Position numbers and translations under genes: made by a program | Notes under the pieces: generated by a model | Databases searched by the model: none | What the model saw: only the letters and a program-made list of their open reading frames with translations | Told to the model about the DNA's origin: nothing | In this document: piece after piece, positions 17,954 through 47,060 of the stretch | How positions within the stretch are numbered: the stretch's first letter is position 1 | How the letters are laid out: each line of letters opens with the position of its first letter | Virus record (IMG/VR): IMGVR_UViG_3300033049_000020 | Span: 62,777-126,776 of that record | Direction: 5' to 3' (one strand) | Source: a virus | Length of the DNA stretch: 64,000 nucleotides

Positions 17954-17960
17954 ATGTCCA

Positions 17961-20827: not shown

Positions 20828-20885
20828 TGTGGGGTAGCTCAGTTGGCTAGAGCCTTGTTTCGGTGGTTCGAATCCGCCCCCCACA
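20828..20885 (+). tRNA. tRNA gene lacking the anticodon arm
   Basis: Acceptor TGTGGGG/CCCCACA, perfect D-arm GCTC-AGTTGGCTA-GAGC and T-arm GGTGG-TTCGAAT-CCGCC, but only 8 nt (CTTGTTTC) where an anticodon arm should be. 58 nt. Cannot decode; either a deletion product or a tRNA-like RNA with another role. Confidence 0.6.
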
Positions 20886-21111: not shown

Positions 21112-22386
21112 ATGAAAGAAGATAAGTTTTACTGTTTGACTATGTTTCCTTATCCTAGTGGTAGTGGGTTGCATGTCGGTCACGCCTATAACTACGCTGT
21201 TATGGATAGCTATTGCCGTTGGAAGAATTTCTGTGGCGTAGAGACATTCCAACCGTTTGGTTATGATGCATTTGGCTTGCCAGCAGAGAATTACGCTATT
21301 AAACACAATCGAGACCCAAGAGAGATTACTTATGAAAATATCGATAATTTTCGTGGTCAAATGGATAGAATGACTACCAATTACGAAGAGATGGTTATCA
21401 CTTCTGACCCATCTTACTACAAGTGGTCACAATGGTTGTTCACCAAGATGGTGGAACACGATATGGCCTACAAGAAGAATGCGCCTGTGAATTTTTGTCC
21501 TTCATGTAATACTGCTTTGGCTAACGCTCAAGTGGTTGAAGATAAGTGTGAACGATGCGATACTAAGGTAGAACAACGAGATATGAACCAATGGTTTTTC
21601 AGGTTGAGCAAGTATGCAGATAGGTTGGTCTCCAACTTGGACATCATTGACTTCCCAGAGAAGACAAAGAAGCAGCAACGTCACTGGTTGAAAGAACCCC
21701 AAGATTGGTGTGTATCTAGGCAAAGAGCTTGGGGTACACCAATCCCTATTAAGGGAGAAACCGACACATTGGATACATTCGTTGACAGCTCATTTTACTT
21801 TATAAGGTATTGTGACCCAACTAACGAGAATGAAATAGCCGCTAAGGATAAGATACGTCAAGTAGACTTGTATGTAGGTGGTAATGAACACGCTTGTATG
21901 CACTTGGTGTATGCTAGGTTTGTAAATATGTTCTTGTTTGATATTGGTGTGACCCCATTTGAAGAGCCATTCAAGAAATTGGTTCACCAAGGTATGATAA
22001 TCAAGGATGGTGAGAAGATGAGCAAATCTAAAGGTAATATTGTTAATCCAGACGATTATGACCCAGACGAGATGCGAGAATATTTGATGTTTTTGGGTCC
22101 TTATACCCAAGGTGGTGATTGGAGCGATAGTGCTATGGTGGGCATTAGGAGGTTCAACGGTAGGTTTAATAGATGGTTGGGTAATGCCCAGATTGACGGT
22201 GAATCAATAGATGTTGGACAATTGATGAGTGATATTGATAAAAATGTGGAGATATTTAATTTTCATTTGGTTATTAGTTCATTTATGAAATTCTATAATT
22301 CAAACAAGGGTAAAGTTATCAACATTAACACTAAGAATGAATTGACTAAAATGTTTACCTGTTTTGCACCCAATTTTACGTCTTAG
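21112..22386 (+). CDS. leuS: leucyl-tRNA synthetase without editing domain
   Basis: 424 aa class I synthetase. YPSGSGLHVGHAYNY carries HIGH, FGLPAENYAI is the LeuRS-specific stretch, NFCPSCNTALANAQV the zinc region, and GEKMSKSKGNIVNP the KMSKS loop. The CP1 editing insertion is absent: sequence runs from the zinc region through the WCVSRQRAWGTPIPI block to FVDSSFYFIRY. The anticodon-binding region is short. It charges tRNA-Leu, and at least three tRNA-Leu genes lie upstream. The last 110 residues are duplicated at 23315, across an endonuclease that overlaps this stop by 11 bp. Confidence 0.92.
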   Translation: MKEDKFYCLTMFPYPSGSGLHVGHAYNYAVMDSYCRWKNFCGVETFQPFGYDAFGLPAENYAIKHNRDPREITYENIDNFRGQMDRMTTNYEEMVITSDPSYYKWSQWLFTKMVEHDMAYKKNAPVNFCPSCNTALANAQVVEDKCERCDTKVEQRDMNQWFFRLSKYADRLVSNLDIIDFPEKTKKQQRHWLKEPQDWCVSRQRAWGTPIPIKGETDTLDTFVDSSFYFIRYCDPTNENEIAAKDKIRQVDLYVGGNEHACMHLVYARFVNMFLFDIGVTPFEEPFKKLVHQGMIIKDGEKMSKSKGNIVNPDDYDPDEMREYLMFLGPYTQGGDWSDSAMVGIRRFNGRFNRWLGNAQIDGESIDVGQLMSDIDKNVEIFNFHLVISSFMKFYNSNKGKVININTKNELTKMFTCFAPNFTS

Positions 22387-29133: not shown

Positions 29134-29145
29134 TGTTCTTTGACA
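29134..29145 (+). promoter_or_regulatory. boxA-like site
   Basis: GTTCTTTGACAT, followed by CTTGGTTAAATGG exactly as at 28387. Confidence 0.5.
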
Positions 29146-35022: not shown

Positions 35023-35030
35023 AATTAAAT

Positions 35031-35061
35031 TTGGTAGTATGGATTATTTTACCTATCTTTG
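35031..35061 (+). promoter_or_regulatory. Bacteroidota-type promoter
   Basis: TTG 35031-35033, TATCTTTG 35054-35061. Nearly identical to the promoter of the ornate RNA at 41499. Confidence 0.8.
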
Positions 35062-40575: not shown

Positions 40576-41469
40576 ATGTTTAATATTTTTAACAAAGAGG
40601 TGTTTGACACCAAGAAGATAGTTACTGTGGAAGAAATCCACCAAGAGTTTGATGATGCACAAGAAAAAGTGTTAAAGGAAGCTTCAGACATACTGGATGG
40701 TATTCCTACCAAAGATTCTAGATTAGAAAGGAAGGCACTTAAATTAGAAATTACTGGTTTCGCTAAGTCGGAATTATTACAGGAATATTATACTAAGAAT
40801 ACCGAAATAGAAACTATTGCAAAAGCGGTGGAGGGTAGAAAACGTATGTTGGATAGTATTATGAAATTCATTCAGAAATATCCATACCAAAAGTTTATCA
40901 CAGTTGATGAATTGGATAATATTTGTGGCAAATATGGGTTGATATATGCACCCGTCAAACACTACATCAAAGATGTTCCAGAGAAGAATCTAGACGAAAT
41001 AGTTAATAGGAAGGAGCTTCATAGTTCTGAAATAACACCAGTTGTTCATATTGTGTCAAAAATAAGTTTTTGGGACAATACACCACAAGATTATCAGGAT
41101 TTTGTGAATAAGCATATCTTGAACCGAGTCTTTCCCGATAAAGAAATGACTGAACGAAACTTTGAACAAGTGATTGAAGAGCGAGGATGGAAAGATGGTA
41201 AGTCATCCCAGTATTGGTTTAGGAAGGCAACTGTGAAGACTGAAGATAATGCTGGATTACAGGTTGCCGCTCCAGAATCACATTTTGATTTGAAAGGATT
41301 GAAAAAGACCAAGAAATTTGGTTTCGCTAAAGTGGAATATATCGAAACTAAAGACCCAATTGTTTTTGAATACTGTAAAGACAATATTGTACGAATAATA
41401 AGTAAGTGGGGGACTGACGATGACCAATCATATTTGGACGAATCGTTGATTAATCAAAATTTAAACTAA
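40576..41469 (+). CDS. phage hypothetical, tandem paralogue B
   Basis: 297 aa, paralogue of 39647 (EEIHQEFDDAQE, YPYQKFITVDELDNIC, HYIKDVPEKN). The middle 60 residues differ most. Last gene before the long non-coding region. Confidence 0.7.
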   Translation: MFNIFNKEVFDTKKIVTVEEIHQEFDDAQEKVLKEASDILDGIPTKDSRLERKALKLEITGFAKSELLQEYYTKNTEIETIAKAVEGRKRMLDSIMKFIQKYPYQKFITVDELDNICGKYGLIYAPVKHYIKDVPEKNLDEIVNRKELHSSEITPVVHIVSKISFWDNTPQDYQDFVNKHILNRVFPDKEMTERNFEQVIEERGWKDGKSSQYWFRKATVKTEDNAGLQVAAPESHFDLKGLKKTKKFGFAKVEYIETKDPIVFEYCKDNIVRIISKWGTDDDQSYLDESLINQNLN

Positions 41470-41498
41470 AAGAAAAAGTGAAATAATTGTCCAAAGAT

Positions 41499-41529
41499 TT
41501 GGTAGTGTGGATTATTTTACCTATCTTTG
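41499..41529 (+). promoter_or_regulatory. promoter of the 1.4-kb structured RNA
   Basis: TTG 41499-41501, TATCTTTG 41522-41529. Confidence 0.8.
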
Positions 41530-41530
41530 T

Positions 41531-42900
41531 AGTGTTCTTTGAAATGATAGATATTGAAGTATTAGGATTTAAAGATTTATTTCTGCAATTAAAAGCGAAA
41601 TAACGGTTCTAAGGTACTGACAGCCGTGAAAGCGGCCTAGGGATAGTAGTGTTAGACAGAAGTTTGATGTTAACGCATTAAATGTTTACTGCGGTAGGAA
41701 AGGCTCTTCGGAGTTACGAAAACATTACGTGCTCAGTGTTGCATATGTGGGCTGGTTCAAGGAGGTTAGACTCTCTGCCCAAAAAAATGCAATTTATAGC
41801 GGCCATAAGCGCTCGTGGAGATGTAGTCTGCATCGAATAGAGTAATTAAATCTATATCCGATACTTCAACCTTTAAAAATATTTAGGAAATGCTTGGCAT
41901 TAACCTGATGAGGCAATCACGAATGTAGTGGATACATTGCAATAGTAGTGATTGTAACTGGTAAGTGAGAACCAACCATGGAACGGTTATCATAGTCTTG
42001 CCGCACGTAGAGTGCCAACATGCCTCTAAAGCATTAGATTCATACGATTGAGTGTGGGTCGTGGTTGACGGATGGTGCAAACCCCTCCCAAGACGCAAAG
42101 GAATAGTGAGAAGAGTGGTAGTTCGCCCTACTTTGTCCCCTTAAGTGGGATGCTCTTCTGGCGACATTATTCCGAGAAATTAAAGATAGATTGGAGAGTG
42201 ACCTATTAGCGTAGGCGGCCTAGTTGGGGTGGAACATACTACGACACCCAACAACGTGGTTAGAGGTCATTGAAGAGTAAGTGTATGTGACGATGACACG
42301 CTCTCCTAACTGTATTGTTTACCGCAGCATCCGAGATTCAAGGTAGGACTGGGCGTTTGGTTTATCCAACGAAGAAAACTTGGGAGAATTGGCGAGTCGA
42401 TAGGGTAGATATACCTTGAATACGCGAAATAAATTGTTCAAAAGGGGCGAATCGAGAGTCGAGGTATTTGTCGTTCCAAACCGAGAAACTCGAACTACTG
42501 GCGAGTAGATTCCACTAAAGATGAAAGCTTGTCTAGGGTGGTGAATACGTAGATGCCCCACCTGTTAAAAGGTTCCAACTACCGTTGGAGGATGGTCGTG
42601 GTCGGAGTGGTGTTCGATTAGTAGCAATGACTTGAAAAAATCAGAGGTCACTGTCATACGCTGTGAATGGGCGTATCGGTAGTCGGACACCGTAAGTTCT
42701 GATGAAGGGGTGCCCATGCCCCACCTATATGGTTCGAACTACCGTTCGAACAGAGATGTGTCGACTTCCAACCGACTATATAGCATTCTCGAAAAAAACA
42801 GAGGCAAAGGGGGTACGCTGCAAATGGGCGTAATAGGTAGCTATATCCGAATAAGTATAGTAAGTCGCCAGAGACTTGGGATTCATCTCTGGCGGTAATT
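41531..42900 (+). ncRNA. candidate large ornate non-coding RNA
   Basis: About 1.37 kb with no credible ORF, higher G+C than its surroundings and dense hairpins: ATTCAAGGTA/TACCTTGAAT (42333 and 42421), GGAATA...TATTCC around AGAAGAG/CTCTTCT (42101-42176), GTTGGG...CCCAAC (42223-42254). Two modules about 163 nt apart (from 42555 and 42718) share GCCCCACCT, a hairpin with TACC loop, a GAAAAAA-ACAGAGG-type segment and a TACGC/GCGTA hairpin. The TACC hairpins differ by a compensatory C-G to G-C change, evidence for RNA pairing. It has its own promoter and boxA and is followed directly by tRNA genes, as known for GOLLD and ROOL RNAs of phages. Family membership is inference. Confidence 0.7.
41534..41545 (+). 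promoter_or_regulatory. boxA-like site at RNA 5' end
   Basis: GTTCTTTGAAAT begins 4 bp after the promoter -7 box, so it would be at the extreme 5' end of the transcript. Confidence 0.55.
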
Positions 42901-42984
42901 GGCGCAATAGCTCAGTTGGTAGAGCGAGGTTTAAAAATGCTACTTGTAGCGGCCTTGGTCGGTGGTTCGAATCCATCTTGCGCC
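42901..42984 (+). tRNA. tRNA with TAA anticodon and a hairpin inserted after the anticodon
   Basis: Acceptor GGCGCAA/TTGCGCC, D-arm GCTC/GAGC and T-arm GGTGG-TTCGAAT-CCATC are perfect. The anticodon loop reads TTTAAAA, then about 16 nt containing GCTA-CTTG-TAGC, then the 3' stem strand CCTT. The insert sits at the canonical tRNA intron position (37/38). Confidence 0.6.
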
Positions 42985-42990
42985 ACATAT

Positions 42991-43047
42991 GGGGAGGTCA
43001 GAGAGGTAGCATTAGGGCTACCCAAGGGTTCGAATCCCTAACTCTCC
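42991..43047 (+). tRNA. tRNA-like gene with one internal hairpin
   Basis: GGGGAG/CTCTCC acceptor, T-arm AGGG-TTCGAAT-CCCT, and a single GGTAGC-ATTAGG-GCTACC hairpin; 57 nt. D- or anticodon arm is missing. Confidence 0.45.
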
Positions 43048-43059
43048 ACTATTATATAA

Positions 43060-43259
43060 GGTACGGTAGCTCAGATTGCGTTAGAGCACTCTTCCTATTA
43101 GAGGTGTACAACTTGAAGTAGGAGTATTAAGATGACTGATAAGATAGTATAGTGAGATTCCCTGATGTACAAGGAGGAACGTTGCTAGAGTGAAATTGAA
43201 AGAAGTCTCGATATTAATAACATGAGAGGGGTCGGTGGTTCGAATCCCTCTAGTGCAAC
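43060..43259 (+). ncRNA. composite tRNA-like region
   Basis: Starts like a tRNA (GGTACGGTAGCTCAG...TTAGAGC) and ends like one (GTCGGTGGTTCGAATCC), but the two ends do not pair. The 3' part forms its own stem GTTGCTAGAG/CTCTAGTGCAAC (43191-43259). CTATTAGAGGTGTA inside it recurs as GTATTAGAGGTGTA in the RNA at 44.43 kb. Probably a tRNA gene disrupted by, or fused to, another structured RNA. Confidence 0.45.
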
Positions 43260-43283
43260 TAAAATATTTTAAACGAATATACT

Positions 43284-44171
43284 ATGTATAAAGGAGATTT
43301 AAAAAATGTACCATCAGAAGTGGTGGTAGTAATCTTGGAAAGGCAGTTAGAACAAGGCAATAGAAGGGATGTAAGTGTATTTGAAGAAACTCTATATGCC
43401 CAACAAGATGAAAATGGGTTCGATTGGGATGCTGCGCCAGAAGGCGATAATTTTTGGGAGAGAGTTTTGGAGTTTGAGGAGTGGGAAATATTTTTCGAGA
43501 AATATCCTAGGAAGTCTTGTGGAGATTATAAGGAGGGTGATTATATTATAGTTACTGAACTTCACGGTGAGTCTAACTACTATAATTGGTTTATGCCAAA
43601 TGAAGTTATAAAAGTTGGTGGTGACCGTTGGATGGGGTCTTTAAGAGAACATTTTGCGGCTATAAGTGCTAACAACTACCCAAATGGTAACGGCATGAAT
43701 TATAATTTTGAAGAAAACTACAAGATAAGACATGCTACAGATTGGGAAATATTATTATCATTTTGGGGTAGTTTTCCAAAAACTAAAATTGAGTTACAAG
43801 TAGGGGACACTTACGAGAACTCAACAGGTAAGATGATGAGGATACATTCAATGAATAACAGTATGTTATGGTACATACATGAGAATGGTACTCTGTACGA
43901 GGAAGAAAAAAATACAATATTGGAACGATTAGAAAGGAAGTTATACAAGAATTATAAATCAGTAAATAATAAATCAAAAACAATTAAAAATGAAGTACAC
44001 AGAGAGAATTCAGAATCAAGGCGAACAAGCAACAAAGGTATTAGAGCAATTAGGCAAAAGGTCGAAATTGCAAGCGCAAGCAGACCTGTTGGAAGTAGAG
44101 TCTCAGATATCCGACAAAGAAACAGACCTAGAAAATCTACGATTAGCGGAAGGAGAGTATTCTTTAACTAG
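43284..44171 (+). CDS. phage hypothetical, C-terminus running into next gene
   Basis: 295 aa. The N-terminal MYKGDLKNVPSEVVVVILERQLEQGNRRDVSVFEE is a recognisable phage block and the middle is well patterned. From about residue 236 (base 43990) the frame is an out-of-frame read of the next gene and becomes basic low-complexity sequence, so the natural stop was probably lost near 43985. Confidence 0.65.
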   Translation: MYKGDLKNVPSEVVVVILERQLEQGNRRDVSVFEETLYAQQDENGFDWDAAPEGDNFWERVLEFEEWEIFFEKYPRKSCGDYKEGDYIIVTELHGESNYYNWFMPNEVIKVGGDRWMGSLREHFAAISANNYPNGNGMNYNFEENYKIRHATDWEILLSFWGSFPKTKIELQVGDTYENSTGKMMRIHSMNNSMLWYIHENGTLYEEEKNTILERLERKLYKNYKSVNNKSKTIKNEVHRENSESRRTSNKGIRAIRQKVEIASASRPVGSRVSDIRQRNRPRKSTISGRRVFFN

Positions 44172-44259
44172 AGTAGCGGAATGTCAACTTGCGTTGAACG
44201 ACCTGAATGCCGTTTACAAATTGATGAATAAAGAGATGATTGCCGAATTCGGCAAGTAA
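43990..44259 (+). CDS. small coiled-coil phage protein
   Basis: 89 aa. ADLLEVESQISDKETDLENLRLAEGEYSL is a strongly patterned helix typical of a small phage family. Overlaps the 3' end of 43284 in a different frame; this is the frame that looks genuinely coding. Confidence 0.7.
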   Translation: MKYTERIQNQGEQATKVLEQLGKRSKLQAQADLLEVESQISDKETDLENLRLAEGEYSLTRVAECQLALNDLNAVYKLMNKEMIAEFGK

Positions 44260-44265
44260 TCAAAA

Positions 44266-44640
44266 ACATTAAGGATAACAACCTTGTGGGTTACAAAATA
44301 TTATCTGCTTTAAGCAAACAGTAAACACGCTGCCCATGGAACCGTTGATAACCTATATTATAGGAAGGAGGGGCAAGGATAATGAAAGGAATAATACGTC
44401 CTTTTTAATTTACAGTCTAACCAAGACGTTGTTTGTATTAGAGGTGTAGACAGAAGTAACTGTTTTGTTACGACCACTCAACCTTTGGTGGGTTGACAGA
44501 TATAATATTGAGAGTGATAGACAGCTCCTGAGTGGATACAGGGCGATTAGGACTAAGGAGAGTCATTAATGACTAGCCTCCTACGGGAACACAACTCCGT
44601 CTAGCTCTTTTATTGTTCTCATCCAATTTGCAGAGAGCAC
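44266..44640 (+). ncRNA. candidate structured RNA
   Basis: No ORF. Hairpins: GTAAC-TGTTTT-GTTAC, TCAACC-TTTGGT-GGGTTGA, CCTG-AGTGGATA-CAGG, AGTCAT/ATGACT within GGAG...CCTCC, and ACGG/CCGT near the 3' end. TAGACAGAAGT (44449) also occurs in the large RNA at 41649. No clear promoter of its own; family unknown. Confidence 0.5.
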
Positions 44641-44643
44641 AAC

Positions 44644-44651
44644 ATATTTAT
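44644..44651 (+). promoter_or_regulatory. second-class promoter element
   Basis: ATATTTAT, 6 bp before ATG 44658. Confidence 0.4.
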
Positions 44652-44657
44652 ATACAC

Positions 44658-45137
44658 ATGAGAGCAATAGAGACACAAGCACCAGACCCAATAGAGAATA
44701 AAGATGGATTCTTAACAGTTTTCTTAGCTGGTTCCATTGAGATGGGAATAGCTGAAGACTGGCAGAAAGAATTAATCGGACTATTATCAGATAAACCAAT
44801 TGAATTCTTGAATCCAAGACGAGACGATTGGGATTCATCTTGGATTCAAGAATTCGGTGATAATGAATTTACCGAACAAGTAGAATGGGAACTATCATCA
44901 TTAGATGCGGCAGACTTAATCATCTGCTATTTCGACAAAGAAACCAAATCACCGATTACCATGATGGAACTTGGCTTACATGCTAAGTCTCAGAAGCTAA
45001 TTGTTTGCTGTCCAGAAGGATTCTGGCGTAAAGGAAACGTTGATGTTATTTGTAATAAATACGGTATAACACAAGTAACAGAATTAGAAAAATTAGCCAA
45101 TATATTAAGATTACGAAGTCTTATAAGTACAATTTAA
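44658..45137 (+). CDS. nucleoside 2-deoxyribosyltransferase-like protein
   Basis: 159 aa. VFLAGSIEMG, FLNPRRDDWDSSW, DAADLIICYF, SPITMMELGLHA and VCCPEGFWRKGNVDV match the nucleoside 2-deoxyribosyltransferase-like fold (glutamate in MELG). May hydrolyse or exchange nucleotide N-glycosidic bonds in phage nucleotide metabolism or defence. The start at MRAIETQ follows an ATATTTAT element. Confidence 0.75.
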   Translation: MRAIETQAPDPIENKDGFLTVFLAGSIEMGIAEDWQKELIGLLSDKPIEFLNPRRDDWDSSWIQEFGDNEFTEQVEWELSSLDAADLIICYFDKETKSPITMMELGLHAKSQKLIVCCPEGFWRKGNVDVICNKYGITQVTELEKLANILRLRSLISTI

Positions 45138-46866: not shown

Positions 46867-46956
46867 ATGAGAAACTTTACTACGACTTATAAAGGGAAAC
46901 AGTATCCGCAAGGCACAAAGCCAAGCGCACTGAGATTGTCGTATCTTGTTTTCTAA
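46867..46956 (+). CDS. 29-aa leader peptide of tRNA operon 3
   Basis: MRNFTTTYKGKQYPQGTKPS and nine more residues; shares MRNF with the operon 2 leader. Confidence 0.45.
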   Translation: MRNFTTTYKGKQYPQGTKPSALRLSYLVF

Positions 46957-46990
46957 CTTTTTAGAATAGAAAAACACATAGATATTGCGA

Positions 46991-47022
46991 AAGCCTCAGT
47001 GAGAAATCACCGAGGCTTTTTT
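46991..47022 (+). terminator. leader terminator/attenuator of tRNA operon 3
   Basis: GCCTCAGTGA-GAAA-TCACCGAGGC (one mismatch) then T6. Confidence 0.85.
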
Positions 47023-47060
47023 GTTGTTTCATATTTTGACAACGTTAAAAATAAAATATG

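What the first reader, a model, noticed from the sequence alone, without database searches (positions are those of the whole stretch)
41531..42900. 1.4-kb ornate non-coding RNA candidate with internal covariation
An ORF-free stretch has its own promoter, begins with a boxA-like site, and ends at tRNA genes. Two modules about 163 nt apart each contain GCCCCACCT, a TACC-loop hairpin and a TACGC/GCGTA hairpin with loop TGYRAATGG. The TACC hairpins (42573-42589 and 42733-42750) are TTCCAAC/GTTGGA and TTCGAAC/GTTCGA: a C-G pair replaced by G-C, a compensatory change visible inside one molecule. GOLLD and ROOL RNAs of phages also lie next to tRNAs and reach similar sizes, but this may be a new class.
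Basis: partly seen in the sequence, partly recalled or inferred. Interest (0 to 1): 0.9.

Follow-up and report, generated by a model that had tools for sequence, protein, structure and literature searches.

The report
New large phage RNA heading tRNA operon
A virus of Bacteroidota bacteria carries a 1.4-kb untranslated stretch between its own promoter and a tRNA gene; its first 350 bases are a folded RNA that one distant relative keeps in the same place, and it matches no described RNA family, although relatives carry the known giant RNA GOLLD in the same gene neighbourhood.

Summary
41531-42900 has no credible gene. It starts at a Bacteroidota-type promoter (41498-41529) and a boxA-like site (41533-41544), and stops one base before a tRNA (42901). 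It matches none of 4227 Rfam families (E<=10). New here: the 5' part (41546-41895) is a conserved structured RNA. One distant phage (G032) has it at 66% identity, E 8e-36, in the same slot of the tRNA array. The consensus fold beats every column-shuffled control (z -5.7); 13 pairs change on both sides against 6.7 expected; every frame is broken by stops. boxA-like sites in the window sit mostly at tRNA-operon starts, so this looks like an antiterminated, untranslated RNA at the head of a tRNA operon, probably cut off by RNase P. Relatives carry genuine but diverged GOLLD RNA in the same gene neighbourhood (three phages); G032 has both, so the 5' domain is not GOLLD. Limits: only two of 91 related records carry the 5' domain; the other ~1 kb has no homologue; its fold stability is not above coding controls; the within-molecule compensatory change is one pair. 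That the 1.37 kb is one RNA, that it multimerises and what it does are inferred. Verdict: real, a probable new family of the GOLLD/ROOL kind.

The parts
41498..41529 (+). Bacteroidota-type promoter (TTTG-N20-TATCTTTG)
   Evidence: 22 such sites in the window, 2.2 expected; no other on the + strand between here and 45138
41533..41544 (+). boxA-like antitermination site TGTTCTTTGAAA directly after the presumed start of transcription
   Evidence: 5 in window, 0.9 expected, 1 of 100 shuffles; others at 17960, 28386, 29134, 47060, mostly next to tRNA genes
41546..41895 (+). Conserved 5' RNA domain (module 1), also found in phage G032
   Evidence: 66-72% identity, E 5e-28 to 8e-36; consensus energy z -5.7, 13 double-sided changes vs 6.7+-2.4; stops in every frame in at least one of the two phages
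41555..41868 (+). Predicted closing helix of the 5' domain: 41555-41562 with 41861-41868; G032 folds into an analogous closing helix of different sequence
41623..41636 (+). Hairpin GCCGU-GAAA-GCGGC; AACGU-GAAA-GCGUU in G032 (two compensated pairs)
41749..41780 (+). Hairpin GGGC...GAGGUUAGACUCUC...GCCC, inner and outer stems kept in G032
41896..42552 (+). Middle part, no homologue found; predicted multi-branched with long-range helices (e.g. 42100-42116/42152-42173, 42193-42200/42299-42306)
   Evidence: prediction only
42553..42705 (+). Module A: GCCCCACCT, TACC-loop hairpin, long helix 42609-42620/42680-42691, TACGC/GCGTA hairpin
42713..42862 (+). Module B: paralogous copy of module A
42866..42894 (+). 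3'-terminal hairpin CGCCAGAGA...TCTCTGGCG, no T-run after it; ends 6 nt before the tRNA
   Evidence: no intrinsic terminator on the + strand at 41200-44700
42901..42986 (+). tRNA with an enlarged anticodon loop, presumed first tRNA of the operon and RNase P site that would make the 3' end of the RNA
   Evidence: RF00005, 53 bits
42991..43048 (+). Shortened tRNA-like element lacking a D arm
   Evidence: sequence inspection; weak partial RF01852 match 42991-43047, E 9.4

Best explanation
41531-42900 encodes a long untranslated structured RNA (about 1.37 kb). It is transcribed from a host-type promoter, kept going through untranslated sequence by boxA antitermination, and released from the downstream tRNAs by RNase P at 42900/42901. 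Its 5' part (41546-41895) is an independent, conserved RNA fold that relative G032 uses as a shorter RNA in the same place; the rest, with two duplicated modules near the 3' end, is specific to this phage. By setting and anatomy (large, multi-domain, boxA, tRNA-array slot, GOLLD in relatives) it most likely works like GOLLD/ROOL: an abundant structural RNA acting as a self-assembled RNA particle or a scaffold for tRNAs/ribosomes. Shown: conservation and structure of the 5' domain, non-coding nature, promoter, boxA-like site, tRNA adjacency, non-membership of Rfam families. Inferred: a single transcript, RNase P processing, the GOLLD-like role.
For: Homologue in G032 at a colinear place between tRNA-Phe/Asp and tRNA-Tyr/Thr matches; consensus fold z -5.7 and excess of compensated pairs (13 of 57 pairs); no shared reading frame; promoter class; boxA-like sites mostly at tRNA operons and at the GOLLD gene of G032; GOLLD in G010, G013 and G032 with the full-length model, its properties from PMC12286853; module duplication.
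Against: Only two phages of 91 related records carry the 5' domain and G032 lacks the 3' kilobase. Single-sequence folding stability is within coding controls. The 3' part has no homologue and one compensated pair. No transcript data.
Confidence: 0.55

Rival explanations
1. Two or more separate RNAs: a ~350-nt small RNA (5' domain), as in G032, followed by unrelated tRNA-operon leader or spacer RNA.
For: G032 has the 5' domain alone, followed directly by tRNA-like elements and tRNAs; the rest of the window region has no homologue.
Against: No second Bacteroidota promoter and no intrinsic terminator between 41531 and 42900; GC stays raised across the region; duplicated folded modules at the 3' end.
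Confidence: 0.25
2. A highly diverged GOLLD RNA.
For: Three relatives carry GOLLD in the same tRNA neighbourhood; same promoter and, in G032, boxA layout.
Against: No GOLLD match in this phage at E<=10, with the same search scoring the relatives 57-96 bits; the GOLLD motifs CTACTCAAAAGGTAG and AAAAGYAAAAGTTC are absent; G032 has the 5' domain and GOLLD as two genes about 2 kb apart.
Confidence: 0.07
3. Only a leader/spacer of a tRNA operon: boxA loading plus folded RNA that aids tRNA processing, with no function as an RNA of its own.
For: boxA-like sites head tRNA operons here and the RNA ends at a tRNA.
Against: Other boxA sites lie 8-96 nt before their tRNAs (coordinates), not 1.36 kb; the 5' domain is conserved in fold in a distant phage.
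Confidence: 0.12
4. Degenerated tRNA array or fragment of ribosomal RNA (AACGGTTCTAAGGTA resembles 23S helix 71).
For: A 17-nt near match to 23S (sequence inspection); aberrant tRNA-like elements nearby.
Against: No LSU match at E<=10; local similarity to 16S/23S within the genomic null; no tRNA found inside.
Confidence: 0.01

Closest known systems
GOLLD RNA (RF02032)
   Same: Large phage RNA beside tRNA genes; in G032 it also has a Bacteroidota promoter plus boxA-like site; separate 5' and 3' regions; occurs in three relatives of this phage.
   Different: No match of the covariance model and no GOLLD motifs in this phage; in G032 the 5' domain and GOLLD are different genes.
ROOL RNA (RF03087)
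   Same: Large phage/prophage RNA near tRNA islands, forms RNA-only cages (PMC12286853).
   Different: No match in this phage or in 20 relatives; the control set gave no positive either.
rRNA operon leaders with boxA
   Same: boxA directly after the promoter, long untranslated RNA, tRNA downstream.
   Different: No rRNA; no LSU match.
YrlA (Y RNA-like, RF02553)
   Same: A tRNA-like, YrlA-like element (34.5 bits, E 5e-5 to 5e-4, below the gathering score 69) follows the 5' domain in G032.
   Different: No match in the window region.

Membership tests
GOLLD (RF02032) | Match to the covariance model of the conserved 3' region | tested here: not met
   none in this phage at E<=10; 57.6-95.6 bits in three relatives
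GOLLD (RF02032) | UCAAAAG hairpin and AAAAGCAAAAGUUC motifs | tested here: not met
GOLLD (RF02032) | Large RNA (often >800 nt) near tRNA genes in a phage | tested here: met
   transcript length itself not measured
GOLLD (RF02032) | Homo-oligomeric RNA cage | not testable with these tools
   needs RNA synthesis and cryo-EM
ROOL (RF03087) | Match to the covariance model | tested here: not met
   (E<=10); without a positive control
LSU rRNA (RF02541) | Match to the covariance model | tested here: not met
   (controls rang in 10 genomes)
Any Rfam 15 family (incl. OLE, HEARO, introns, riboswitches) | Match at E<=10 inside 41531-42900 | tested here: not met
   only implausible matches far below the gathering score
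boxA-antiterminated stable RNA operon | boxA just downstream of a promoter, no translation, tRNA downstream | tested here: met
   actual antitermination not testable here
Protein-coding gene | Reading frame kept in a homologue | tested here: not met
   indels of 2 and 22 nt, stops in every frame in at least one phage

The most novel reading that the evidence does not exclude
A third, unrelated architecture of giant phage RNA that assembles into a large RNA-only particle: a 1.37-kb RNA built around a reusable 350-nt 5' domain, present in a phage in which no GOLLD was found.
Probability: 0.2. Interest if true: 0.85.

Novelty: new variant of a known kind. Interest (0 to 1): 0.58.

Why it matters
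GOLLD and ROOL, unrelated in sequence, both form RNA cages and lie near phage tRNA arrays, and why is unknown. A further unrelated large RNA in a GOLLD-bearing neighbourhood, with its 5' domain coexisting with GOLLD in one relative, would show that phages have evolved such RNAs repeatedly and gives a comparison set. The boxA sites at tRNA operons suggest how long untranslated RNAs escape termination.

Tried and rejected
A 23S rRNA relationship suggested by AACGGTTCTAAGGTA (none). Diverged GOLLD. The 52-aa ORF 41682-41840, which tblastn matched at 47% identity but which has five stops in G032. Fold stability as evidence (controls as stable). Further homologues by exact patterns in IMG/VR: a module A/B pattern gave one chance match, the TACGC hairpin none, the three-anchor pattern only G032, and the GGTTAGAC pattern G032 plus chance (L106 is coding with a permuted tmRNA). 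None in 84,980 GTDB genomes by pattern or in the phages collection. The R1 match in G086 (E 0.09) lies in a coding gene. A scan for D-armless tRNA-like folds gave 6 against 2 in one shuffle, too few to claim. I suspected a Ro60/TROVE protein; Pfam says DUF2828/DUF7788.

Full report
Observation. The stretch 41531-42900 lies between a 297-aa gene of unknown family (40576-41469) and a tRNA (42901-42986) in a 152-kb IMG/VR phage record that is linear and possibly incomplete. It holds no ORF above 62 aa on the + strand and 80 aa on the - strand, and 41470-43283 is the largest stretch of this phage without an ORF of 85 aa or more. The two 3' modules are real duplicates: local score 44 against a maximum of 25 for 2000 random pairs.

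Start and end. The promoter TTTG-N20-TATCTTTG at 41498-41529 belongs to a class found 22 times in the window against 2.2 in shuffles. The boxA-like site TGTTCTTTGAAA follows it at 41533-41544. Five such sites (12-mer with at most one mismatch) occur in the window against 0.9 expected, and 1 of 100 shuffles reaches five. All are on the + strand. Those at 17960, 28386 and 47060 lie just before tRNA genes; the one at 29134 lies between tRNA-Phe and a tRNA-Glu, with an ORF in between. The GOLLD gene of relative G032 also has promoter plus GTTCTTTAAAA. No intrinsic terminator and no second Bacteroidota promoter lies on the + strand between 41531 and the tRNA. The predicted 3' hairpin (42866-42894) ends six bases before the tRNA, so RNase P is the simplest way to make the 3' end (inference).

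Homologue. Of 91 related phage records, found through a T5-A1-like protein, one (G032, IMGVR_UViG_3300038696_000205) has a match to 41546-41895: 66% over 349 nt, E 8e-36. It lies at a colinear place between tRNA-Phe/Asp and tRNA-Tyr/Thr matches, also behind a promoter (sequence) and in front of tRNA genes. RNAalifold on the pair gives 57 pairs, 13 of them changed on both sides. Against 400 column shuffles that keep gap and conservation classes, the consensus energy is at z -5.7 (none as low), and 2% of shuffles reach 13 double changes, the mean being 6.7. That control does not keep dinucleotides, so the energy z is somewhat optimistic; the count of double changes is the safer figure. The clearest case is the hairpin GCCGU-GAAA-GCGGC against AACGU-GAAA-GCGUU. 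Both sequences also fold alone with a closing helix of different sequence. Coding is excluded: indels of 2 and 22 nt, stops in every frame in at least one phage, and five stops in the only frame that tblastn had matched.

What is not supported. The MFE of the whole RNA has z -3.8, but 17 control windows of 1370 nt from the same phage range from +1.4 to -5.2. Stability is therefore no evidence. Modules A and B share hairpins, and their consensus energy is low (0.25% of shuffles), but they show only one double change, which 80% of shuffles reach. The 3' kilobase has no homologue in any collection searched.

Relation to known RNAs. No Rfam family matches at E<=10 beyond implausible hits. GOLLD is absent from this phage but present, full model length and below the gathering score, in G010, G013 (95.6 bits; identical over the 3.4 kb compared) and G032 (57.6 bits). 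In G032 GOLLD is a separate gene about 2 kb downstream of the 5' domain. ROOL was not found in any relative, but that search had no positive control. An LSU rRNA link suggested by one short motif failed two tests. From PMC12286853: GOLLD and ROOL, unrelated in sequence, both lie near phage tRNA islands and form RNA cages; GOLLD can hold tRNAs in its linker, rises at lysis and binds ribosomes in pull-downs.

Mechanism. Best-supported: an antiterminated stable-RNA operon of the phage whose first product is a long structured RNA and whose later products are tRNAs. A GOLLD-like structural role is inferred from setting and size, not tested. The phage also encodes a tmRNA, a sigma factor, a class I aminoacyl-tRNA synthetase-like protein and an MnmA-like tRNA-modifying protein, so an RNA acting on translation fits.

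Verdict. A probable new family of an existing kind, with one solid domain and one unproven kilobase.

Noticed in passing
G010:C1:234632-235063 (L117), G013:C1:297756-298187 (L118), G032:C1:102772-103171 minus (L119): Diverged GOLLD RNAs below Rfam's gathering score in large phages related to this one; the Rfam cut-off misses them.
   Followed up: partly
window 17960, 28386, 29134, 41533, 47060: boxA-like sites near tRNA operons of a phage, suggesting phage use of host rRNA-type antitermination.
   Followed up: partly
window 20828-20885, 42901-42986, 42991-43048, 43061-43260; L005 8150-8530; L217 7085-7400: Aberrant tRNA genes: lacking the anticodon arm or D arm, with enlarged or hairpin-bearing loops, or with halves separated by inserts.
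   Followed up: partly
window 41570; L088 7599 minus; L217 7141 and 7314; L005 8551, 8624, 8684: Recurrent motif AAAGATTNNTTTCAGCAAY(Y)AAA at the start of the 5' domain and inside interrupted tRNA-like regions of relative G004; shorter forms elsewhere in this phage.
   Followed up: partly
L088 7216-7282 minus (L068 1309-1375): YrlA-like, permuted tRNA-like element directly after the 5' domain in G032.
   Followed up: no
window 46868-47025: Short conserved ORF (MRNFTTTYKGKQYPQGTKPSAL...) with its own promoter and a downstream hairpin with T-run; counterparts follow GOLLD in G032 and G010.
   Followed up: partly
L004:17834-19288; window 21112-22386; L006:507-1628; L005:4751-5126: Phage-encoded DUF2828/DUF7788 (phrog_850 RNA-binding) protein, a 424-aa class I aminoacyl-tRNA synthetase-like protein, an MnmA-like protein and a tmRNA.
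   Followed up: partly
L106 2106-2474 minus: Permuted (two-piece, betaproteobacterial type) tmRNA on a viral contig.
   Followed up: no
window 35030-35061: A near copy of the promoter of the RNA (TTTGGTAGTATGGATTATTTTACCTATCTTTG).
   Followed up: no
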